A DNA stretch of 64,000 nt, from assembly GCA_033297075.1 (NCBI GenBank), contig MU858162.1, positions 54,362 to 118,361 of the forward strand. The letters run 5' to 3'. Positions within the stretch are counted from its first letter, which is position 1. Each line of letters opens with the position of its first letter. The notes beneath the pieces were generated by a model. The model worked only from the letters and a program-made list of their open reading frames with translations, did no database searches and was not told where the DNA came from. The DNA comes from Rhypophila decipiens (taxonomy: Eukaryota > Ascomycota > Sordariomycetes > Sordariales > Naviculisporaceae). Positions 1-44,709 of the stretch are shown here, one piece after another. Both the position numbers and the translations under genes were made by a program.

Positions 1-914
1 ACTCGACAAGTACGAAGAGGCCCGCTCGAGCACAGAGGTGGACGAATCGCTGATGGGAGACGAGAAGCAATGGCACAAGCAGCAGCCACACCAACAGTCA
101 GGATCGAGGTCAATGAGGAGTAGGATCATGTCTGTTTTGTGGTCAGCTAGATGGTTTGTCGATACGCTCTTGCTCCTTGCCATTCTCGGGCTGCTGGTAC
201 GAGACCAAATGAGGAAGCCTGAAGTGAACCAGTGGGACTTTGGTGGTGATTTCACCGGCGTGGGACCACGATGTAGGGCGCCAGGGTCCGTCAAGATGTC
301 ATGATGGTTAGGTTTGCTAATGCTGTCATGTCACAGTCTCCCAGAAAATCGTCAAGTTCGAAATGGACCAATCGTATGCACCAACCAACTCGTCCGAGTT
401 CTTCACCGACGAGGTGCTCGACAGGTGGAACAACCTGATGCCGGTCGGAATGGGCTTCGTCTGGGTCAACGACACGCACAAGTACCACGACCTGCCCACG
501 CCCATCGACTGGCCCGACAAGACGGTGTTTACCACGTCGGTCACGCACCAATTGCACTGTCTGTTTGCCATGGTCCAGACGTACTCGGGCCTCAAGTCCA
601 ATCATCCTATCCCCGACGACCACCACTGGCACATGGTGCACTGCTTCGACTACATGCGGCAGGCCATCATGTGCAGTGCCGATATGGCGTTGGAAGGACT
701 CGAGACTACCTTTCCTGACCACAATGGTGGTTCGGATGGCTGGGACTCCAAGCATGGTGAGTACAGCTGCGCCCTTGATTCGATAACTTCGATTGGGGAT
801 TCTCTGATGCTGACCTCGTGCCGCTTTTCTCGGGATGAAGTCTGCAAGGACTACAGTCAGGTCAAGAACTATTTGGAAAGCGTTAGAGCCTATGACGACA
901 GGCAAATTTACTGA
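1..914 (+). CDS. UstYa-like (DUF3328) protein, 5' end outside window
   Basis: UstYa-family proteins are membrane-anchored oxidases best known from fungal RiPP (dikaritin) and other peptide pathways, where they help cyclise a core peptide. The frame is already open at base 2 (LDKYEEARSSTEVDES...), and no ATG precedes it in the window, so the start lies to the left. Proposed exons are 2-272, 337-756 and 841-914. Intron 1 uses GTAGGG with CACAG, and intron 2 uses GTGAGT with GAAG. Splicing restores the family-typical GPRF junction and the VCKDY C-terminus. One membrane segment (WFVDTLLLLAILGLLV) is followed by the two diagnostic HxxHC motifs, HQLHC and HMVHC. Its pathway partners are probably left of the window. 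The family is clear; the substrate is unknown. Confidence 0.88.
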
Positions 915-1361: not shown

Positions 1362-4300
1362 ATGGTGAACGTCACCTCCCTTCTCCTGGCAGCCCTGCTT
1401 TGGGCTTGGGGGGTCTTTGGAGGTAGAGTTCTGTCCGTTCCTGGACACCGCAGTGCCCTATGCTGACCGTCTCTCGTCCTCCAGAATCCGCCCAGCCATC
1501 GACCGAACTGAGTGATGCTTTCGTTGTCTCGACGTCCGTCTGGACCTCGGTGGTTCTCGAGACCTCGGTCGTCCTCAAGACCTCCGTCTGGACCTCGATC
1601 GTCCTCGAGACTATTACGCAAACTTCTGTTGGATCGCTGCCGGTGATTTATACGGTAACCGGCGATTCCACGACTACTTCAACCATCGGCACACCAACAA
1701 CAGTCGGATTGTCCTCTGAAGCCCCTTCCACGCTCTCGACTGGAACGCCGTCTACTTCTTCCATTCAAGGACAAACCACCATTGCCTCATCATCGACCCA
1801 GGGTAGCACCCCAACCTCACTCAGCAGTCCACCGCCTACGACAAGTCCCGTGGGAATCTCGTCTGCGAGTAGCACCAGTACCTCTGAAGCGTCCCTAGCG
1901 TCGTCCACACCACTTTCGGAAACACCAACAGCCGTGTCTTGGACCTCACAGCCGCTACCGCCGTCATCCCAGAGTCTGTCGACAAGTTTGGACTCGTCGT
2001 TCACCCAGGCCAGCACGTCTCTCTCTACTTCGCCAATCACTGCGCCGTCTTCTGGTGCACCTTCAAGTTCCCCAGTGCTCAACCCAAGCCCAACACCTTG
2101 GTCCATTACTGGCCCGTCCTCGGGCTCGCCTTCAAGTTCCCCAGTGCTCAGCCCGAGCCCAACACCTTGGTCCATTACTGGCCCGTCCTCGGGCTCGCCT
2201 TCAAGTTCCCCAGTGCTCAGCCCGAGCCCATCAACTTGGTCCATCACTGGCCCATCCTCGGGCTCACCTCCTTCGGCGCCCAGCCAGATTTCAACGACTC
2301 CATCCACCAGCCTCGTCGAGAGTTCCCTGCCAGCATCGCTTCCAACCCCGACAGCTGCCCCAGCATCTGTCACGGTCCCAGTGCCTTCAGGCTTTACGCT
2401 GTCCTGGACGTCATTCCCCACCCCATTTACCCTGTCGTCTATTCCTGAGCTGCCCTCGGCGGTACCAACATGGCCAGCTGGGACGTCTTCCTCCAGCTCG
2501 ACTACCAGCTCCAGCGCTACTCCCAGCCCCACCGCCAATGCAAGTCCTCAATACATCGCACCACTGCACGTGTTCAAGCTGGATAACGTGGCGTACTTTA
2601 TGAATCCGTACTGTGACGAAGAGCCACAGGTGCTGTGGCTGTCTGACGGGACCAACTTCACACTGCATTGCGACCGGTTCGAACTTTTCAACGGAACCGT
2701 GCTTGCTATGCCCGCCACCATCGCTGACGACGTGGACTGTTCTGGGCTTGGCCTCGCGTTGGATGATATCTGCTGCCTCCGACGCTTCAATTGGGTGAAA
2801 ACGGGCGAGCCCACATCCAACAGCACGGCTGAATGGTGCAACGCAGACATCACGCCCCACTCCATGTTCAAGACGGCTGCGCGTGATAGCACGACGGCGG
2901 CCGACGACCCCATTTCCCAGATTGCCAGCAAGCTCGGCGGACTGCCCAACTTTGCCTGCGAGGTGTCCCAGGCCATGCTTTCGCTTGCCGTGTCCATCTT
3001 CAGCATGGGAATGGCAACCGACAATTTCATGAGCGCGGCCGACGATGTCATCGAACTCTTCATCGCCACCGTCACCCGCCAGTCTGACGCTCTCCTGGCC
3101 CAGTTGAATACGTGGGTCCACGACGTCGACCAGACCATGCTGGAGCTCTACTGCATCGTCGACACGGCCGACGGCCACAAGAGTCGCATCTGGAGAGTGC
3201 TGACGCATCAGCATCACCTCCACGTCGGAATGAATGTGCTCTTGTCCGTCAACAGGGCAGGCCACGTCAACTGGCTCGTGAAGGTCATCATCTCGGTCTT
3301 GAGGCTCATTATCCGGGGCATCGCGCTGCGGTTCAAGTTCCTGATTGGAGCTTGGGGTGCTGTTTTGGAAGGAATGGGCCAGCTCTCGCGGACCTGCAAC
3401 ACCAACTGGAAGGAGCCCGCTCTCCGGAACCCGCAGGACGAAGAGCCCGAGGAGGAAGACGAGGATGGCATGACAATACGATTTTGGATCGAGGGCAGTC
3501 AACTTAGTTCACTGGCGCAACTCTGGACGGTCGAGGGAACTCTCGGCGTGCCCATTGGTGGTGTTCCAGACGATAATCCGCAAGGACCATGGGAGATTTC
3601 AGCAGCGTCGCGGGACGGCTCTGTTCCGCCCAGTCTCCTCATCGACCTCAGTCCAATGCAGGCTCTTATGGCGAAAGCAGCTTTGACGGGAACAATGACT
3701 ATGGCAAAGCTGCCTGGCTGGGACCAGTTCCTTTCCGTGAGCCGGGATATTCCGGATACCCGCGGCGACCCGCGACCTCTGAGATCCGGCAGCGATGGGA
3801 AGACGGCTCAAGTTAGGCCTCAACCTGAAGTAGACCATGACATTCTCGATCGAAACAAAACGTCAGAAGAGGACAAGCATGGAGACAACGAGCTGGCCGC
3901 TGCTGCGGACCCGGATCCCCCACCAGAGAAAACATACCCCTGGATTCCTCTGATAGACAGGGTTGAATTTACTAATCCATCAGATCAGCGTCCGTTCATA
4001 TCCCGTCCCAAAGGCAAAGACGAAAAGTGGGGTTTTTATAGCCACCATAGTTCTGATGGTCAAGGGTCATGGATATTTATAATCGATACTGGCTTCACAA
4101 CAGCTCAATACGAAAAGCGAGGCCAGGTTTGGGGAGACACTGGCAGGGAGATACGGAAAAGGGTTGTCCCTAGACACTACCTACTCCCAAAACTAGCGAT
4201 ACCGCGATACCAGCCAGCGACACCAGGCAACCCTGCCCCTGTTCCTCAGCAAAAGATCTGGCCTGTCCCAGATAGTATTGAGGACGATTGTTGGGATGAT

Positions 4301-5634
4301 GACAGGATGTTTCAGCAGGGCCATGGAATGATGATGACCTCAATAGCTGCCGGAAAAACCTTTGGGGTGGCCCCAAAGGCCAATCTCTACTTGATAAAGG
4401 CCATGTCTGGCGTTTATTACAAGGACCCAGCTACGGTGCCCCCAGGGGTGAACAAACCAGTGGGTCTTGCCATGGTCACACGACTGGCTTTTGAAAAGAT
4501 TATGAATAAGATTTTTCTAGAGGTAACTAGAGGCGGAATCCCTCCAGCGAAAAGCTTTATTGTCATCGCCATTCAGCTGGGTTCCTACAGGACGCGACCC
4601 CTCCCTGCGGGGGGTTGGGAGACTGATCAGGAGTGGAGGGATACCTGGAATGAGTGGCGCAACAAGCTCGATGCGCTGGGGGTAACCTTCGTCTTCGCAA
4701 GTTCAAACGCTGGCTTTGAACCCCGAACCGGAGGACCAAAATATTACCAGGAAGACCTCGCAGTCGCTGGATGGATAGGCCAAGACAGTCCTGCCATATT
4801 GGTTGGTGGTGTGTACCCCGATGGCTCACTTTGGGAAGGCACTACGCCATCGGACCCACGTCGGAACGGCGCCCAAATCAGCATCTACGGCCGAGCATGG
4901 GACCAGTCGGCCTTCGTTGCTGGTTCGGCCAGTGACAGGATTGACGTAAGACATGATCTAGCGGGCTGCAGCGGTGCTGCCGCACAGGTGGTGAGTTTGA
5001 TAGTCGCCACTGTGAGTTGGAGGATAACCTCTCGGGATGCTAACAAATCATTAAACAACATTTACAGGCCGGCCTCGTTGCCTACTTTCTGGCCTATCCT
5101 TGGCCTGCGGGCACGAACCCGTTTGACCCCACAGACACGTCAAAAACGGTTGGAAAGCGGATGAAAGAATATCTGATTAGCGCCTCGTACCGACGAGTCC
5201 CAGACATTTTTGCTATCATCGGATACGCCCTACGTCAAGGAGGCGAGATTGAGCACGCCGGTTTCGATGAATTTCCTTACTATCCCCCCAGTTGGATAAA
5301 TACTGCGTACAATCTGGCCGAGGGCCCACAACGGTGTCTTGCCGTTGGCTCCTTGCCAGCGGGACGTTTTGGAGCTGCCGCCGACGGTGGTTATCCCGAC
5401 ACCTGCCCCGTCCCGGCTGTTGTTCCTGGAAACGACGCGACCTGGACTGGCACTGCCCTGACGGCTGCAAGCACATATTCAGCCCCAGACCTTCCAACAA
5501 CATTGAGTTGGACGATCACGAGCGAGAGCACGACCTTTGTCTCGGTAGTCACATGGGCGCCCAGCTCGACCTCGACATCCGCAACTCGACCTCGACATAC
5601 TCAAACTCGAGCACAAGTTCGACTGCTCCTCTGA
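1362..5634 (+). CDS. Secreted Ser/Thr-rich protein with subtilisin-like (S8) domain, probably disrupted at 3' end
   Basis: Proposed exons are 1362-1422, 1485-4990 and 5068-5634, giving 1377 residues. Exon 1 encodes a signal peptide (MVNVTSLLLAALLWAWGVFG). Residues about 25-370 are very rich in Ser, Thr and Pro, with three 23-residue tandem repeats, as in wall-anchored or heavily O-glycosylated stalks. A Cys-containing central region follows. The S8-like domain has a plausible triad: Asp888 in IIDTG, His967 in QGHGM and Ser1183 in GCSGAAAQV. The last intron (GTGAGT...TTTACAG) falls just after the Ser motif and restores AGLVAYF. The frame closes at 5634 after an abrupt Arg-rich tail, while the protein-like Ser/Thr sequence continues in another frame (see the 5618-6245 entry). 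The role may be extracellular proteolysis or wall remodelling. Confidence 0.75.
2048..2254 (+). repeat. 69-bp in-frame tandem repeat, 3 units
   Basis: Units run 2048-2116, 2117-2185 and 2186-2254, with a partial fourth after them. Each encodes 23 residues beginning SSGSPSSSPVL and ending WSITGP. Units 1-3 differ at only a few bases, which suggests recent expansion inside the Ser/Thr-rich stalk. Confidence 0.93.
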
Positions 5635-6245
5635 TAACCTGGTCGAGATCATTCGACCTCACCTCGACGACCTCTACGACCGTTACGCTAGCCACAGCCA
5701 CCATAGTCGAGAACCCAGACCCCTCCTCCATCGTGTGCTCGGGTTCCGACTTGTCCCCGGACGGGCAAGAATTGGACCACGACACGGCATATGCAGCCAT
5801 AACCGCTCGGGAATTCTGCGTCGGCGGCGCGGACGGCACCTACGGCGGGTACTTCCCCAACGGAGTCCCCGACACCCTGCCAAGAAGCGAGGAAATAGAC
5901 GGATTCTCATGGCTCTCGCTGCGCTACTACCCAGGCCAGGTCCCCGGCGACCCGAGCAACTTTACCGGAGTAGTCTACGAAGCCGGCTTCCGGCGAAACT
6001 ACGAGCCCGACCCACATCCAGGCGAGTAGACGATCCCCAAGTGCCAGGTCATGTTTAAGAAACTCGTTGAGACGTGCAAGGGTGGATTCTATGGCGGTTT
6101 TGCCCTTGATCAGAATGGTGTCGAATGGATACTTGATGCTGTTCATTGGGACAACAACACGAAAGCGCCATATTGTTGGGACAAGGAAGATCCCGAGAAG
6201 GCCTGTTACGATTGGCACACCTCGTCATGGGGGGGTTCCAAGTAA
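5618..6245 (+). pseudogene. Displaced C-terminal part of the S8-like protein (frameshift plus in-frame stop)
   Basis: Around 5545-5617 the coding signal moves from the upstream frame to the -1 frame without an obvious phase-correcting intron. The donors at 5539, 5545 and 5548 combined with the acceptors at 5611 and 5617 all give the wrong phase. The new frame continues the Ser/Thr linker and a Cys-containing domain (FCVGGADGTYGGY), then meets TAG at 6027-6029. The same frame stays open beyond it (KCQVMFKKLVETC, CYDWHTSSWGGSK) to the TAA ending at 6245. The simplest reading is one missing base plus one nonsense change, either real decay or sequencing error. An in-frame 78-nt intron at 5970-6047 could remove the stop, but its donor is weak and it would not cure the frameshift. 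Confidence 0.6.
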
Positions 6246-7545
6246 ACGACAAAAGAATACGGACTGCAAATGGTATAAATGGTATTGATGGCTGAAAACT
6301 CTCGGTCTTCTTTCTTATTTTCTTGAGGTTATGGTTTCTAAAACTACTTGAAACTCAATAAGCTTGTAGAGAAGAAGATTAGCCTTAGAATAGTAGTACC
6401 TTTTCAAAGAAAACCTGTAGCGAATGCTCGTTTATCTGGTGATATTGTATCTGCATGTTTTTGCGGTCCTCGGGGGGTTTTCTTTTTGGTTTTTTTTGTT
6501 CACCCACTTGGCTTCCATAAAGCAAGTGGCTGGCTGGAGTTTGAATTTCCTGTGCTAGCTTCTGCTGTGAGCGAGAAAAGTATGTATATGTATCAAGACG
6601 AGTAAAAGTCTCTTGAGTTCTTTGGTAAATGTCCCACTTTCTTGTTTGGGATTCATGGGAGAGGTGGTTATAAATAGCTTAGCTCTACCACTATACGCCG
6701 AGCTAGAGAATATCTAGACGCCGCCTATCAACTGAACCTCGTTCCCCTTTATATAGAATGATCCATGGGCACTACCTATACTATATTAGCTCCTTTGCTT
6801 TTACTTTTTTACTGTCTTGTTCGGGGCCTGAGAAATAGGCACCAGTCTTCATACACACAAGCACCCCTCTCGTATAATAGAAGATGCCTTGGCTAGCTAG
6901 AGGAAATGACTTGGCCGGTTGTAACACATGGCATAATTCGCTAGAATAGATAACTTGAATGGCTGGAATAGATGCCTCGACTAGCACGACTAAATGCCTT
7001 ACGATGCCTTATTTGACTGGAATAGATGCCGTACCTTGCTAGAATTCAGACTTGTCTGGCTAGAGGAGATACCCTGGCTAACTAGAATATATGCCCTCTT
7101 TAGCTAGAATAAATACCTTGTCTAGCCGGGGCAGCTACCTTAATATATCTGAATAAATGCATCAACTTTCCTGATGAAATATCTTTACTCGGTGAAATAA
7201 ATGCTCTGGCTAACTGGAATAAATGCCTTGTTTGGCTGGAATAGATGACCTGTCTGTGGGGAATAAATGCCATATAATGGATGCCCCGATTGGGCTGGAG
7301 CCTGGAGGAGATACTTCAACTAGGCTAGAAGTGAAAGTGAACTGACTGGTGCTTGTTCTCATATGAAAGTATTGCGCCGCTCTATCAAGTCACCGGTATT
7401 GCGGCTGTGTCTCATCATTGATCAAGGTCCCGGTTACATTTCAAGGCTGCAATGCTATCCTAAGGCTCGCTAAAATCCCACACGGTCTATAATGATAACA
7501 TTTCGCTTTTTGAGACCCCATTTCTTTATTTTATGCCAAGTCCCT
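6246..7545. other. Intergenic region with degenerate minisatellite
   Basis: No gene was recognised. The left half is AT-rich and unstructured to my eye. The right half carries the degenerate repeat listed separately. Confidence 0.5.
6875..7330. repeat. Degenerate minisatellite, about 24-30 bp period
   Basis: The motif CTAGAATAAATGCCTTG and variants (ctggaatagatgcc, ctggaataaatgcc, ctagaatatatgccc) recur about every 24-30 bp, roughly 15 times, with much point divergence and variable spacing. It lies downstream of the protease-like gene and of the convergent tyrosyl-tRNA synthetase gene. Confidence 0.75.
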
Positions 7546-38676: not shown

Positions 38677-39042
38677 TCAGACGACGCATCTCGGCTTGAC
38701 ATTGTCACGAGAATTAATAGTCTTGTGCGCTTTAGGCTCTGTTTGGATAAGATTGTTAGTGTCATATAAACATGAGCAGCTACTTGTTTACTATAGGACC
38801 AGAAGAGTCAGGGCCTGCTTAAGAAGCGGATGTACTTACCAGCCACAGTGCACGTATTCGCCGTATCAATGGTGTCGATGGATCCAGAGTCGGAGAGAAC
38901 TTTTAGCAATCGTGAGTTAGAATGTGCTGTTCAGTTCATTGAACGGGCTTAGGTCTAGAGACTCACGTGGCAAGGGGAGAGCAAGTCCGTGATGGACCAA
39001 GGCCGAGAAACCGAACAAGAGGGATACTGAGAGCGACTTCAT
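38677..39042 (-). CDS. Small secreted two-cysteine peptide, candidate peptide precursor
   Basis: Proposed exons on the minus strand are 39042-38967, 38899-38840 and 38738-38677, giving 65 residues. Both introns carry strong signals: GTGAGT with branch CTAAC and acceptor AAAAG, and GTAAGT with branch CTAAC and acceptor AACAG. All phases agree, and this is the main evidence for so short a gene. Residues 1 to about 22 form a signal peptide (MKSLSVSLLFGFSALVHHGLA), then LPLPLLSDSGSIDTIDTA. Two cysteines follow, Cys42 (NTCTVAE) and Cys63 in the C-terminal KPRCVV. It diverges from the UstYa-like gene with 732 bp between the two ATGs. It could be a RiPP-type precursor with a C-terminal core, or a small secreted effector. 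It lacks repeated cores and dibasic Kex2 sites. Confidence 0.68.
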
Positions 39043-39774
39043 CTTGAGGTGATTTGAGTAAGGTAAGTGGGGTTGATCGTACTTGGTAGGGGTCAAGGAC
39101 TTCTGAGATGTTGAAGATCTGACGAGGGGATGGAAATTATCTCGAACTCTTTTGCAAACTTTATACAAGGATCTTCATTAGAGGCTCTCTTGGATCACGA
39201 GGATTAGAGTGGTAGTAAATATATGCAGGTCTAATTACCTGCCTACGCAAGTCGATATCAAGACACGGGCTACTGCTCACGTTTTAGCCCAGGAACCAGG
39301 AGAATTCGGAGTAAGATCGTTATCGATATCGTACGATATGCAGGACCTCTTGGGGTAGATTATCTTACTTCTTGACCTCCATGTGATGGCCTTGTAGTCT
39401 TAATATATAATTGAGGCTGGGGCTCCATTCGCTGCACGACTGACCGAGACTGGGCAGACGGCAGATTTCACGAAGATGCAACAACTGTTTGGTCTCGTGC
39501 AGAAGATGTCGCCTTTGACTCTCCATATTGGCCAATCTTTGAGGTGCAGCTGGGCCGTTGGAAGCTTTCGGGTCCAAGCAAACAGTTGGACTTGTTTGCA
39601 CTGCCCGTATCTGAGACTTTGACAAGAGATCGCGGGCCGATCCTATTTCTGGCCCATGTCTCTTACGTCCGTGTCGCTCTTACGTTAAAGCTAGCTCGAA
39701 ACAAATAACACCGAGTTCTGAACCTCACTTCTAGTTGATGAGCAGGCAACTTCGTCTCCTCAAGCCCTACCACC
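39043..39774. promoter_or_regulatory. Shared divergent promoter of peptide and UstYa-like genes
   Basis: 732 bp separate the two divergent start codons. The region carries the 14-bp palindrome listed separately. Open frames here are not protein-like. The layout suggests joint control, which is inference. Confidence 0.5.
39326..39339. promoter_or_regulatory. 14-bp perfect palindrome, candidate regulator site
   Basis: ATATCGTACGATAT reads the same on both strands and overlaps a second palindrome TATCGATA at 39321-39328. It lies 283 bp from the peptide gene ATG and 435 bp from the UstYa-like ATG, a normal distance for a cluster-specific activator site. The binding protein is unknown. Confidence 0.45.
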
Positions 39775-40811
39775 ATGGACGACGAAAAGGCATGTCTTGT
39801 TCAGCGGCAACGTCGTTCCTCGGAGGATATGCTGAGTGAGCGGAGTTCTTGTCGGCATTGGGAATTCTGCTCACCTCGATCTACCATATTCTCCGCCGTT
39901 TCTATTGCATACGTTATTGTTCTTCACATTATCTGTCTCAGTCTTGGGTGCTATGTACTTTTTCTACACCTCCAGGCTTCAGAACGGCCAGAAGATTCAC
40001 TTCTAGGTAAGGAAAGAAGGGGAAAGGACCACATTCTGGTTTATTGACGTCCTATTGACAATCTGTACACAGATTTTGCCAGACGCTATGGTCCTGACTG
40101 GGTGCCGATCTCCTACGAGCTGCGTCCTGAACAGAAATACGGAGCGGGGGAAGGGATGGGGAGTGAATTCGCTGGACCACCAAACCAGTCCAACACCAAG
40201 GCCTGGGATGATCTGATTACACGTACGTTCGGGTTTATCGAGTAGCTGGTTGATAGGCAGAGAGCTGACATAAATGTTGATCGAAACAGCAACCTTCTTT
40301 TCGTCATCACTCTCTGATCTCCAGATGACAGGTGAATCAGTCGATGACGCGGTGCGGTTGGCTCAAGGGGGGTACATCGCCGGTCTTGCCGTCTACCACA
40401 ACATCCACTGTCTAAGACGACTCCGACTGTTTTTACACAGCAACTACTACTATGACAATTTCACAGAGGCCAATCTGGAGTACCTTAGGGGACATTTAGG
40501 TACTAAACCTGCTGTCTTCCGTTTACATGGTCATGGTGGATGATGAAGCTAACGATTCCAACTTTGAAGGCCACTGCATCGAATCTCTCCGTCGCACAAT
40601 CATGTGCGATGCCGACACTACAGTCTACACATTTACATGGAAGGACGCCGAACTGATCAGTCCAGGAATCTGGCGTCCGAGACCCAAGTCCAGCCAAGAG
40701 AAGAGGTGCGTCAATTGGGAGAAGGTGGAGAACTGGGCGATGGAACGGCGGGTTGAACTGAACCCTGTGCTTCTGAAGCCCAGTGGAGAGGAGGAAAAGA
40801 TCCTAATGTGA
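39775..40811 (+). CDS. UstYa-like (DUF3328) oxidase, complete
   Basis: Proposed exons are 39775-40006, 40073-40222, 40290-40499 and 40570-40811, giving 277 residues. All three introns are 66-70 nt with consensus ends (GTAAGG...ACACAG, GTACGT...AAACAG, GTACTA...TTGAAG). The ATG is in a good context (CCACCATGG). A cytosolic N-terminus is followed by one membrane segment at residues about 37-62 (VSIAYVIVLHIICLSLGCYV) and a lumenal domain. Both family motifs are intact: HNIHC at 164-168 and HLGHC at 196-200, the second formed across intron 3. UstYa homologues act in the secretory path on peptide precursors and form cyclic linkages. The peptide gene beside it and the peptidase at 41.6-42.7 kb fit that role. 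The substrate is not shown. Confidence 0.9.
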
Positions 40812-41642: not shown

Positions 41643-42684
41643 CTAGTCATACGTTCGCCCATGTTGATCCAAAAAGTCACCAACAACCGTCAACACACGC
41701 TCAGCCAGTCCATTGGCTTGTTCCAGATGGCACATGTGGCCTCCATTAGGAAAGGTAATCCATCTCACGCGAGGAATGAGCTCAAAGAAAGGTACCTGGC
41801 CGATATCGCCCGAGGTGTCGAATTCACCATTGTAAACAAGAGTCGGCGCCGTGATGGTGTGCAGTCGGGGGATGCTCGTCCAGGGTGCTAACGAGCCATT
41901 GCAGTTGAATACCGACGGGCCGAACCTGAATGCGGGAAACCAACCAAGTCAACATCGGACTCCGAGGTATAGTAGGGCTGTGCTGTGGCAAGACTTACAT
42001 TGTACCATAGACAGTCTTGTCCTCGGTAAGATTCTTAAATGCCTGGACCATTTCGGCCGGCAGAGGATCCTCGCGAATGATGAAAGTCTTTTGGAAGACG
42101 CTGGCGGCTTCCAGAAAGGCCGGGCCTTCGTAAACGCCCTCTTGGACGGCCTTGTCGATGGCTTTCTGCATCTCCAATGGCAGCTGTTTCTGGCACATCT
42201 TGATGCTCTGGATGGACAGCTGCATTGAAGCCAGGGCGCTGGCCAAGACTAGTCTCTGCAGCCCGCGCGGTCTACTGGCAGCAAAGGAAGAAGCAAGTAT
42301 GCCGCCCCAGCTTTGGCCCAGTAGGTGGAATCCGGGGCCGTCGCGAAGGTGAAGGTGATCAAGAAGGTTGTCCAGTTCGGCGACAAACAAGGGCTCTTGC
42401 CAGAAGTTGGTGTCTCCTGCCGTCTCTGGGAGATGGGTGGATTGGCCACAGCCGATTTGGTCGTACAGAACTACGGGCAGACCGTACCGCTCCCAGAGCT
42501 GAGCAAATGAGAGGAGGTACTCGTGGCCACCACCGGGGCCGCCATGGAGGACAACAACCCGTGGAGCGTCACTGGAAAGGTCGCCGAATACCTTGTAGTA
42601 AGTCGAGCAGGAAAGATGCTCCTTGCCGGGGATGGTGAAAGGGACTCTGCCCTCAGCTGTCGGCTTGAGCTTGGAGGCCGTCAT
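41643..42684 (-). CDS. Prolyl iminopeptidase-like alpha/beta hydrolase (peptidase S33)
   Basis: Proposed exons on the minus strand are 42684-41999 and 41925-41643, giving 322 residues. The intron is GTAAGT...ATTCAG. The ATG at 42684 gives MTASKLKPTAEG; the frame is open further upstream but has no other Met. S33 landmarks are clear: oxyanion loop LHGGPGGGHEY, DQIGCGQS, nucleophile Ser125 in GQSWGG, Asp265 in YNGEFD and His292 in NGGHMCHLE. Family enzymes remove N-terminal proline from peptides, and some fungal members are amidases or hydrolases of secondary metabolism. There is no signal peptide, so it is probably cytosolic. Its place beside the peptide and UstYa-like genes makes a peptide-trimming role attractive but unproven. 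Confidence 0.92.
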
Positions 42685-43368
42685 TGTGTGAAGATGACCC
42701 GAATAGGAGTAAGTGATAATGATGGCGAGTTTAACAAACTCTTCTTGCAATGACGGGATGTACCAAGAAATGCATGCCTATATGCTCCCTTTCCAAGATT
42801 TGAAACATCTCCATATTATCAATCATATGCATGTCGGCGTCTGTCTCCAAGGCATGGACTTGTCATGGACTTGTCCAAGGCGGTCCTCAGACAGGGGTCT
42901 TGTTTGGCCGTTTAGATTAAGCAGCTGCATGGCTTCCATGCAATGCCACACTACACTCCGGCATCTCGACTGACATGTCCCGCAAGCCGTACAAAGCCCA
43001 CACAGCATGCCGTCGTTTCAGTCTTCGGGGATGGCGCTGTAGGGCCCAGGCGCAGCTGACCATGTTCCGAGTGGGGGAGATAAGAAGTTTATTGATGGGT
43101 CGTCAACATATCAGGGGTAGGAGGGTTGTAAGCAACATCAACATGTAGTACTCTCGGGCCAACCTCAAACTATATGTATAGCCTAATAATGACCATTAGC
43201 ACATGGCACAGTCCCAGCCGCCTTCTAGAACATTGTAACCTGCAGGCTCGCCAACTAACTTACATTGTCTTTATAGTACAGGTTGTAAAACCTGCAAACC
43301 TCGGTCATTTGGTCGTTGACCCATCGCCTCTCCCTTATTCACTTTCAACAAAGAGTTCGCCATCAAAG
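42685..43368. other. Divergent promoter region, no gene seen
   Basis: This lies between the S33 hydrolase (minus) and the PTH11-like gene (plus). No repeat or RNA gene was noticed. Confidence 0.45.
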
Positions 43369-44709
43369 ATGTCTAGCGAGTCCAAGGAAGGCATCATTGC
43401 CCTTTGCGGAAGCCTACTGGGTCTGACAAGCCTTTCTGTCGGCCTGCGCTTCTATGTTCGCAAAAGACAGCGGGCTCCGATCATGTTGGACGACTGGTGC
43501 GCCGTGGCCAGTCTGGTAAGTGAAGCCATTCCATCCACTCTGCCGAGCTCGTGCTAACGAAAATCGTGAATCAGGCCGGTTTCATAGGAGCTGCGGCTAC
43601 ATCTATCCACAGTATGTGCTCTGAAGGGCTCCCCATCACTGTTTACCTACATCCTTGGCCCTAACAAATCCGTCACCGCAGTGGTTCGACATAGAATCGT
43701 AGGGCACCCTGGCTCGCCCGAGATTGCAGGGGAATACTCAGCCAAGGCAAGTCTTCTCCGGCGGCTACTCTGCTACTAGCTCCTTATCAAAGCTAACCAG
43801 TCACTCCGGGCAAAAGCTCCAAATAGCATGGGACGTCCTAACCCTCACCGCGCTGTCCTTCTCCAAGCTCAGCGCGCTATTCTTCTACCGCCGAATCTTC
43901 TACCTCGGCGGCGGTCAATCCCACCTCAACATCGTCGTCCTCATCACCGCGGCCATTATAGTCGTGTGGATGACCATCTTCCAGTTCCTGACCGGCTTCC
44001 AATGCGGCACACATTTCACTGCCCTCTGGGACGGAACCTATCTCGAGTACTGCACCATCTCCTTTCCCTTCCTCATTGGTCTGGCCATCTCGGACTTTTT
44101 GCTCGACGTCTGGATCGTGTCTATTCCTATTCCTAGCGTTTTGAGATTGAATGCGCCCTGGCCAAAGAAGCTTGCTGTTCTGGGTGTTTTCTTGCTCTCT
44201 CTGGTGTGTGTTTATGCATCCGCGAACCGGGTTGCAGTATTTGCTCCCCTTATCAAGGCTGGACCTGAGTATCTGATCAACTTTGATTATGAACGTGAGT
44301 TTGACCCCCATGCACTGGCTTCATGATCAAAACATAAAAGTTAATAGTCTCTTCATCAAATACTGTAGGAGCCATATCCAACGTCGTGTTCTACGTGGAC
44401 ATGGAGGCAGGTATATCCCTCCTGGCGGTCAACCTCCCGACACTTTGGTTCTTGGGGACCGTGATCAAGCCGCATATCCGAACCTTGTCTAGTAAGCTGT
44501 CTCAAACTCGTCTGCTAGGCAGTAGAAGCGGTAATAATAGCACCGGTGCTAGCAAGACGGCTGTCGGGGAGGTCCGTAGCCCAGTTCATGCTGAGTTAAG
44601 GTTTGAGACTACGCCGTCTATGCAATCAGAAAAGACGCCGTCAAAGACAGATACAATCACGTCGTGGGATGAGGAGCTTGAGATGGGTCATCGAACAGTT
44701 GGGAAATAG
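43369..44709 (+). CDS. PTH11-like integral membrane protein (fungal rhodopsin-like domain)
   Basis: Proposed exons are 43369-43515, 43575-43611, 43682-43746, 43817-44294 and 44369-44709, giving 355 residues. Intron 3 (43747-43816) begins GCAAGT after CCAAG, a consensus GC-AG intron, with branch GCTAAC and acceptor CAAAAG. The family pattern is visible: N-terminal helix, LDDWCAVASL, IAWDVLTLTALSFSKLSALF, YRRIF, a Cys-containing loop (FQCGTHFTALW), several helices, SNVVFYVDMEAGISLLAVNLPTL split over two segments, then a polar Ser/Thr-rich cytosolic tail. In rice-blast fungus PTH11 senses surfaces. Many relatives lie in metabolite clusters without known function. Its last base is 17 bp from the convergent dehydrogenase gene. 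Confidence 0.87.

What the first reader, a model, noticed from the sequence alone, without database searches (positions are those of the whole stretch)
38677..40811. Divergent small secreted peptide and UstYa-like oxidase: candidate minimal peptide-natural-product (RiPP) module
Seen: a 65-residue ORF rebuilt from three exons with strong splice signals, a signal peptide and a C-terminal Cys (KPRCVV), facing a complete UstYa-like gene with both HxxHC motifs. Known: UstYa homologues modify ribosomal precursor peptides in ustiloxin, phomopsin and asperipin pathways. Inference: the small protein is the substrate. It would be unusual, with one possible core at the C-terminus and no Lys-Arg-flanked repeats, so it could be a new precursor class or simply an effector.
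Basis: partly seen in the sequence, partly recalled or inferred. Interest (0 to 1): 0.78.

Follow-up and report, generated by a model that had tools for sequence, protein, structure and literature searches.

The report
Fungal peptide paired with modifying oxidase
A dung fungus carries a tiny secreted peptide gene back-to-back with a peptide-modifying enzyme gene, and a second, much-diverged copy of the same pair elsewhere in its genome, which suggests an unusual kind of ribosomal peptide natural product whose precursor lacks the usual repeats.

Summary
In detail: a 65-aa, three-exon secreted-peptide gene (39042-38677, -) faces an intact four-exon UstYa (PF11807) gene (39775-40811, +). An NCBI protein of Rhypophila sp. 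PSN 637 matches the peptide end to end at 82%. The window is most likely Rhypophila decipiens. New here: the nearest UstYa paralog (contig C89, 61-63% identical) has a diverged peptide in the same divergent place, with three exons, the same intron phases and the motif IDTxxxCT...PxAHxTxNSRDxxxxRC[VI][VI]. The DNA pattern for AHxT.NSRD occurs twice in 45.7 Mb, at these two loci. The same divergent slot holds repeat-type RiPP precursors at other UstYa loci, and 3 of 4 clear proline-iminopeptidase-family genes, one in this module, lie within 2 kb of a UstYa. Best reading: a non-repeat substrate of the adjacent UstYa, a variant of dikaritin-type RiPP systems. It fails the repeat and Kex2-site criteria, and its mature part lacks Tyr, Trp and Phe. 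Substrate status and product are inferred. No relative outside Rhypophila was detected.

The parts
38677..39042 (-). Small secreted peptide gene, 65 aa; exons 39042-38967, 38899-38840, 38738-38677
   Evidence: Splice enumeration; full-length 82% NCBI homologue V8F33_006338; C89 paralog
38677..38738 (-). Exon 3: conserved C-terminal block PxAHxTxNSRDxxxxRCVV; candidate recognition sequence plus core
   Evidence: Conserved between window, PSN 637 and C89 peptides; pattern for AHxT.NSRD found twice in the genome; 9 of the 10 residues identical to C89 in this exon use another codon
39043..39774 (.). 732-bp divergent intergenic region, presumed shared promoter
   Evidence: Geometry of the two gene models; co-expression not tested
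39775..40811 (+). UstYa-family oxidase, 277 aa, four exons, HNIHC and HLGHC motifs, N-terminal membrane segment by eye
   Evidence: PF11807 E 3.1e-42; alignment of 18 sequences
41643..42684 (-). Proline-iminopeptidase-family alpha/beta hydrolase, two exons, approximate model; likely module member
   Evidence: TIGR01250 E 2.2e-43, 148.9 bits against a curated cut-off of 167.65, first exon only; Abhydrolase_1 8.7e-14; 3 of 4 clear members in the genome lie within 2 kb of a UstYa
43132..44709 (+). Fungal rhodopsin-domain membrane protein (approximate bounds); possible module member
   Evidence: PF20684 E 7.5e-24 for 43703-44326; PF20684 stretches within 5 kb of 8 of 49 UstYa stretches, about 1.4 expected

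Best explanation
The small gene encodes a precursor peptide that enters the secretory pathway and is oxidised there by the adjacent membrane-anchored UstYa enzyme, giving a ribosomal, post-translationally modified peptide (RiPP). It is a single-copy (non-repeat) precursor: signal peptide, a variable linker, then a conserved C-terminal block (IDTxxxCT...PxAHxTxNSRDxxxxRC[VI][VI]) acting as recognition sequence plus core, with the modified residues probably among Cys42, Cys63 and the flanking Val/Ile. The neighbouring proline-iminopeptidase-family enzyme probably trims the product. Shown: the genes, the conserved block, the diverged second pair, the association of UstYa in this genome with secreted-peptide ORFs and with this peptidase family. 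Inferred: that the peptide is the substrate, where it is cut, and the chemistry.
For: (1) Gene reality: 82% full-length homologue of identical length. (2) Second pair: the closest UstYa paralog in the genome (61-63% in three segments; the others 25-45%, apart from 51% over one 44-residue stretch) has a 62-aa peptide divergently upstream, three exons, both introns in phase 1 (exons 82, 39, 68 nt against 76, 60, 62), 37% identical overall; from residue 36 on 15 residues are identical and 10 of them use different codons, which points to selection on the protein. (3) Exclusivity: AHxT.NSRD pattern 2 matches in 45.7 Mb, at these loci, control 0. (4) Slot: in the divergent upstream flank of UstYa a signal-peptide-like ORF is found in 10 of 25 cases against 9 of 79 in the other three flanks at score threshold 3.1 (Fisher p 0.0027), and repeat proteins lie there at C71, C152, C326, C58 and, with two copies, C156. 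(5) Peptidase: 3 of 4 clear proline-iminopeptidase-family genes lie within 2 kb of a UstYa (P about 6e-7 under random placement; 1.5e-6 if the weak fifth match is counted); at C152 one accompanies UstYa and a repeat precursor. (6) Mature part predicted unstructured (pLDDT about 50, single sequence, weak evidence).
Against: The two pairs may stem from one block duplication, so their linkage may be a single observation. The mature peptide has no Tyr, Trp or Phe, while the ether cross-links of ustiloxin, asperipin-2a and phomopsin are made on Tyr (PMC7329392, section 7). No repeats and no dibasic Kex2 site. No homologue outside Rhypophila was found (1 hit among 1 candidate; 1 among 7), although the UstYa homologues come from many other genera (17 proteins); the search needs shared 5-residue words and annotated genes. 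The slot enrichment depends on the threshold: 11/25 against 13/79 at 2.9, 8/25 against 9/79 at 3.3, but only 4/25 against 6/79 at 3.5, and random windows in the same loci scored 25.7% against 11 of 29. The C89 signal peptide is not recognised by that scorer, and C89 counts as a miss. No proline-iminopeptidase-family match lies on C89. At C53 the repeat precursor is not in divergent orientation. The genomic position of the PSN 637 peptide is unknown. No expression or chemistry data.
Confidence: 0.6

Rival explanations
1. The peptide is an ordinary small secreted protein (signal, antimicrobial or effector-like) with one disulfide between Cys42 and Cys63, acting unmodified; its place beside UstYa is a by-product of one block duplication or of shared regulation.
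For: Two cysteines conserved in the three known peptides; no aromatic residue in the mature part, no Kex2 site or repeat; only a Rhypophila homologue found; dikaritin precursors and secreted effectors are easily confused (PMC9632046, passages).
Against: The pair is kept at 37% peptide identity and about 60% enzyme identity; the divergent slot upstream of UstYa holds precursors at other loci of this genome; no fold predicted for the mature part (single sequence, low confidence).
Confidence: 0.27
2. The peptide is a partner of UstYa (an assembly, targeting or activating factor in the ER), and the true substrate is encoded elsewhere or is a non-ribosomal product.
For: UstYa proteins also act in polyketide and NRPS clusters (PMC12048977 section 22); the conserved block is very invariant for a core, 19 of 20 C-terminal residues identical between window and PSN 637.
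Against: None of the 10 window ORFs scanned against Pfam is an NRPS or PKS part (the other ORFs were only looked at by eye); no precedent known to me.
Confidence: 0.08
3. The small gene is a mis-built or non-coding model.
For: No RNA evidence is available; other splice combinations exist.
Against: Independent 65-aa annotation at 82%; matching exon structure and protein-level conservation with changed codons in C89.
Confidence: 0.03
4. The peptide is a lipidated a-factor-like pheromone precursor, given its C-terminal CVV.
For: Cysteine near the C-terminus followed by aliphatic residues.
Against: Cys is third from the end (C89: fifth), so there is no CaaX box; it has a signal peptide, which a-type precursors lack (recalled).
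Confidence: 0.01

Closest known systems
Dikaritins (ustiloxin, phomopsin, asperipin-2a, epichloecyclin, victorin; list from PMC10512285, passages)
   Same: UstYa-family enzyme with two HxxHC motifs beside a small secreted candidate precursor; few genes, as in asperipin-2a (four genes, PMC10512285, passages)
   Different: Precursor has no repeats, no Kex2 dibasic sites, no Tyr/Trp/Phe in the mature part, two conserved Cys
KEX2-processed repeat proteins (KEPs)
   Same: Signal peptide, short secreted protein, DUF3328 gene next door (reported for 22% of KEPs, PMC7329392, abstract and section 7)
   Different: Fails the KEP definition of at least 3 repeats between KR/KK/RK/RR sites (section 13)
Lichen RiPP clans R1/R2 with DUF3328 genes but no recognisable repeat precursor (PMC12048977, passages and section 22)
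   Same: UstYa gene without a repeat precursor; the authors name a single-core precursor as one option
   Different: Here a concrete, conserved non-repeat candidate precursor is identified
Repeat-type UstYa loci of the same genome (C71, C152, C326, C58, and C156 with two copies)
   Same: Secreted repeat protein divergently upstream of UstYa; C152 also carries the proline-iminopeptidase-family gene
   Different: Those precursors are repeats, the window peptide is not

Membership tests
UstYa (PF11807) protein family | Match to the family profile above its cut-off | tested here: met
   145.3 bits, cut-off 25
UstYa (PF11807) protein family | Two HxxHC motifs | tested here: met
   HNIHC and HLGHC in the window protein; conserved among 18 aligned sequences
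Dikaritin RiPP | UstYa-family enzyme in the cluster (class-defining enzyme in the looser definition quoted in PMC12048977) | tested here: met
   PF11807 gene 732 bp from the peptide gene
Dikaritin RiPP | Precursor with repeated cores separated by Kex2 sites (definition in PMC10512285) | tested here: not met
   The 65-aa peptide has no repeat and no KR/RR/KK/RK
Dikaritin RiPP | Oxidatively modified, cyclic product | not testable with these tools
   Needs LC-MS of wild type and deletion strains
Dikaritin RiPP | Tyr in the core (usual, not universal: 65.6% of repeats in DUF3328-linked KEPs, PMC7329392 section 7) | tested here: not met
   No Tyr, Trp or Phe after the presumed signal peptide in the window and PSN 637 peptides; in C89 the only one is a Phe in PIFA at the presumed cleavage border
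KEP | At least 3 repeats of 8 aa or more between dibasic sites | tested here: not met
   Sequence; definition from PMC7329392 section 13
Proline iminopeptidase (TIGR01250 subfamily) | Score above curated cut-off | tested here: inconclusive
   148.9 bits against 167.65 with only the 260-residue first-exon frame
CaaX pheromone precursor | Cys fourth from the C-terminus | tested here: not met
   Cys third (window) or fifth (C89) from the end

The most novel reading that the evidence does not exclude
A previously undescribed class of UstYa-made RiPPs: single-core, aromatic-free precursors with a conserved leader (PxAHxTxNSRDxxxxR) and a short C-terminal Cys-aliphatic core (CVV; CIIKV in the paralog), in which UstYa performs chemistry on Cys and/or Val/Ile (desaturation, or a Cys-to-aliphatic or Cys-to-Cys link) instead of the Tyr ether cross-link, followed by peptidase trimming. 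The non-repeat secreted ORFs in the same slot at C26 and C3 would be further members of such a non-repeat precursor type.
Probability: 0.2. Interest if true: 0.85.

Novelty: new variant of a known kind. Interest (0 to 1): 0.6.

Why it matters
UstYa genes are numerous in this fungus (about 49 stretches counted), and the DUF3328-based precursor surveys I saw rely on repeats and Kex2 sites (PMC7329392, PMC9632046, PMC12048977). The lichen survey found UstYa clusters without a repeat precursor and left open a single-core precursor (PMC12048977 section 22). This locus gives a concrete, conserved candidate of that kind, a second diverged pair to compare with, and a genomic rule (divergent upstream slot, plus proline-iminopeptidase-family partner) by which others could be found. 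If the peptide is the substrate, its lack of aromatic residues also implies UstYa chemistry other than the Tyr ether cross-link.

Tried and rejected
Third protein search with the three-peptide alignment: only V8F33_006338 again. Single-sequence AlphaFold of P0001: signal helix, rest unstructured, mean pLDDT 58.7. UstYa model from 16 sequences: mean pLDDT 46, unusable, so no fold search was made. PDB sequence search with the UstYa profile: no match. The idea that the rhodopsin-domain neighbour is specific to the peptide pair was dropped: such genes lie within 5 kb of 8 of 49 UstYa stretches. The a-factor/CaaX idea was dropped on sequence. The regex scan for peptide-like exons in the other fetched loci gave only isolated short hits. 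The all-against-all comparison of short ORFs between loci was cut after about 90 printed rows, so further shared short exons may have been missed. A paper search for the word UstYa alone returned 306 papers; most of the 40 listed titles are on other subjects. For one search the rhodopsin places were typed without its last 19 listed rows; itself scored 150 of 240 candidates and left further matches unlisted, so both the count and the expectation are lower bounds. Confidence in the best explanation was lowered from 0.62 to 0.60, and the first rival raised from 0.25 to 0.27, on recount, because the slot enrichment depends on the score threshold.

Full report
What is there. On the minus strand at 39042-38677 a three-exon gene encodes a 65-residue protein, MKSLSVSLLFGFSALVHHGLALPLPLLSDSGSIDTIDTANTCTVAEPKAHKTINSRDNVKPRCVV. 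Facing it, 732 bp away, is a four-exon UstYa-family gene, 39775-40811, 277 aa, PF11807 E 3.1e-42, with HNIHC and HLGHC. The peptide model was one of several splice combinations, but an NCBI protein of exactly 65 aa, V8F33_006338 of Rhypophila sp. PSN 637, matches it end to end at 82% without gaps; the last 20 residues differ at one position.

Where it is. A UstYa homologue named QBC37DRAFT_425467 [Rhypophila decipiens] lies on a contig of 160,584 bases, the exact length of contig C89 of the window's assembly. The window thus most likely comes from that R. decipiens assembly. PMC12734299 (passages) names PSN293 (R. decipiens, donkey dung) as the only earlier published genome of the family, 47.1 Mb in its table against 45.7 Mb held here, so the strain is not proven; PSN637 came from rabbit dung.

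The decisive new fact. Of the UstYa matches in this genome (67 matches, merged to 49 stretches), the gene on C89 is the closest to the window's: 61-63% identity in three segments, against 51% over one 44-residue stretch and 25-45% for the rest. A tblastn of the peptide against 20 fetched UstYa loci has its best hit, 28.1 bits, divergently upstream of exactly that gene; none of 300 shuffled peptides reached this score, the best being 27.3. The hit belongs to a three-exon, 62-aa ORF, MRCNMLYRYLALCMTGPMTITAAPIFAETEIDTGKACTGKAPLAHGTLNSRDGLGARCIIKV (L012 3377-3010, minus). In both genes both introns are in phase 1. The shared block is IDTxxxCT...PxAHxT[IL]NSRDxxxxRC[VI][VI] with both cysteines kept (PSN 637 has Ala for the Thr after the first Cys). 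From residue 36 on, 15 residues are identical between the two paralogs and 10 of these use different codons, which points to selection on the protein. The DNA pattern for AHxT.NSRD occurs twice in the 45.7-Mb assembly, at these two loci; read backwards it does not occur. Six-frame protein searches with either peptide found only its own locus; since the window peptide did not even find the C89 copy that way, more distant copies could be missed.

The slot. Other UstYa loci of the genome serve as internal comparison. A search for repeats between dibasic sites, in single-exon reading of the 20 loci and the window, flagged L016 (C53), L019 (C71) and L021 (C152, both strands) and nothing in the window; at C53 the repeat ORF is on the same strand as the nearer UstYa, not divergent. 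A crude signal-peptide scorer found a signal-peptide-like ORF in the divergent upstream flank of UstYa in 10 of 25 cases at threshold 3.1, against 2 of 25, 3 of 27 and 4 of 27 in the other flanks and 3 of 52 window segments; Fisher p 0.0027 against the pooled flanks. The excess holds at 2.9 (11/25 against 13/79) and 3.3 (8/25 against 9/79) but fades at 3.5 (4/25 against 6/79), and in a first version random windows of the same loci gave 25.7% against 11 of 29. The 25 are drawn from 29 of the 49 UstYa stretches, 4 dropped because the flank ran off the locus; neighbouring UstYa genes are not independent; the C89 gene counts as a miss because its signal peptide is weak, and the window gene was not in the set. 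Read by eye, of the ten, four are clear repeat proteins, C71 (APLYSLTALVG), C152 (SSPKPPI[ML]DAGVDF), C326 (EYNDNNAVEF) and C58 (DDVASDGHF.VATN.FW); C156 has two copies of DDSNFINFLD; C59 and C251 show short, loose repeats; C26 and C3 show small secreted ORFs without repeats; C282 is unclear. So at the window and at C89 the peptide sits where this genome often keeps its UstYa-linked precursors.

The neighbours. The next gene, 41643-42684 (minus), is a proline-iminopeptidase-family hydrolase (TIGR01250 E 2.2e-43, below its curated cut-off with the first exon alone). The genome has four clear members plus one weak match, and three of the four lie within 2 kb of a UstYa (window, C152, C26), P about 6e-7 under random placement, a question asked after the fact. 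At C152 the set is repeat precursor, UstYa, iminopeptidase; at C26 it is a non-repeat secreted ORF, UstYa, iminopeptidase. No match of this family lies on C89. A fungal rhodopsin-domain gene follows in both peptide loci, but such genes are enriched near UstYa generally: 8 of 49 within 5 kb, about 1.4 expected.

How it most likely works. The peptide enters the ER; UstYa, anchored by its N-terminal segment with the catalytic domain inside, binds the conserved C-terminal block and oxidises residues in it; proteolysis, perhaps involving the iminopeptidase-family enzyme, releases a short product. Everything from binding on is inference. The mature part contains no Tyr, Trp or Phe, so the Tyr ether bond of ustiloxin, asperipin-2a and phomopsin cannot be made. 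UstYa homologues do other chemistry: desaturation of residues in phomopsin (PMC10512285, passages), hydroxylation and chlorination in cyclochlorotine (PMC12048977 section 22). Cys and Val/Ile of the C-terminus are therefore reasonable targets.

What speaks against it. Both peptide-UstYa pairs may derive from one duplication of the block, so co-retention may be one observation. No peptide relative was found outside Rhypophila (1 hit among 1 candidate; 1 among 7), though the 17 UstYa homologues include ones from other Naviculisporaceae, Apodospora, Seiridium, Xylaria and its kin, Lophiotrema, Lophiostoma, Mytilinidion and Zopfia; the search depends on shared words and on annotation of tiny genes. 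The position of the PSN 637 peptide relative to UstYa is not known. A simple secreted two-Cys peptide remains a fair rival.

Known or new. Dikaritins are described as products of repeat precursors (KEPs) cyclised by UstYa homologues (PMC10512285, passages); a looser definition rests on the DUF3328 enzyme alone (quoted in PMC12048977, passages). The repeat and Kex2 criteria were tested and not met, so I do not file this as a dikaritin in the strict sense; it may work like one. The DUF3328-linked surveys I saw look for repeats: PMC7329392 (abstract, sections 7 and 13) and the Venturia study PMC9632046 (passages). A Trichoderma study (PMC7099791, passages) did keep small secreted Cys-rich proteins among candidate RiPP precursors, without the word DUF3328 in its text, so the general idea of non-repeat precursors is not new. 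The lichen study found UstYa clusters without repeats and named a single-core precursor as a possibility. My literature searches, judged by titles and abstract openings, showed no report of this peptide family or of a UstYa-paired non-repeat precursor family, and no paper holding both DUF3328 and iminopeptidase; subscription papers are mostly not covered.

Verdict. A real, conserved peptide-UstYa pair with a second diverged pair in the same genome, probably a non-repeat variant of fungal UstYa-type RiPP systems; substrate status about 0.6 likely.

Noticed in passing
window 321-914 (+): A second UstYa-family gene (PF11807 E 1.6e-16), about 38 kb from the pair; its own neighbourhood lies partly outside the window.
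   Followed up: no
L021 3109-2639 (-), UstYa near 4473-4978 (+), iminopeptidase 5597-6502 (+): Contig C152: a repeat-type precursor (SSPKPPI[ML]DAGVDF units with KKARR between) divergent to UstYa, followed by a proline-iminopeptidase-family gene: a classical-looking cluster with Pro-rich, Tyr-free repeats.
   Followed up: partly
L024 6702-7065 (+): Contig C26: a two-exon, non-repeat secreted ORF (model by eye) divergent to UstYa, with an iminopeptidase-family gene beyond; a second, unrelated candidate non-repeat precursor.
   Followed up: partly
L018 6125-6319 (+): Contig C3: a single-exon secreted ORF of about 64 residues without repeats, divergent to a UstYa gene.
   Followed up: no
L020 3502 downwards (-): Contig C326: the EYNDNNAVEFKKRGELPTSG repeat recurs in all three frames separated by stops, as if each repeat were its own exon.
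   Followed up: no
L019 3261-2560 (-): Contig C71: repeat precursor with APLYSLTALVG units between KR sites, divergent to UstYa; Tyr-containing, a likely ordinary dikaritin-type locus.
   Followed up: no
whole assembly: Fungal rhodopsin-domain stretches lie within 5 kb of 8 of 49 UstYa stretches, about 1.4 expected: a possible membrane partner of UstYa clusters.
   Followed up: partly
P0002 (Rhypophila decipiens UstYa orthologue): 98% identical to the window UstYa over aligned columns but 48 residues shorter, lacking the N-terminal membrane segment, probably a mispredicted intron in the public record.
   Followed up: no
window 1427-5164 (+): A 1245-residue open frame joining a long Ser/Thr/Pro-rich stretch to what looks by eye like a subtilisin-type protease region.
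   Followed up: no
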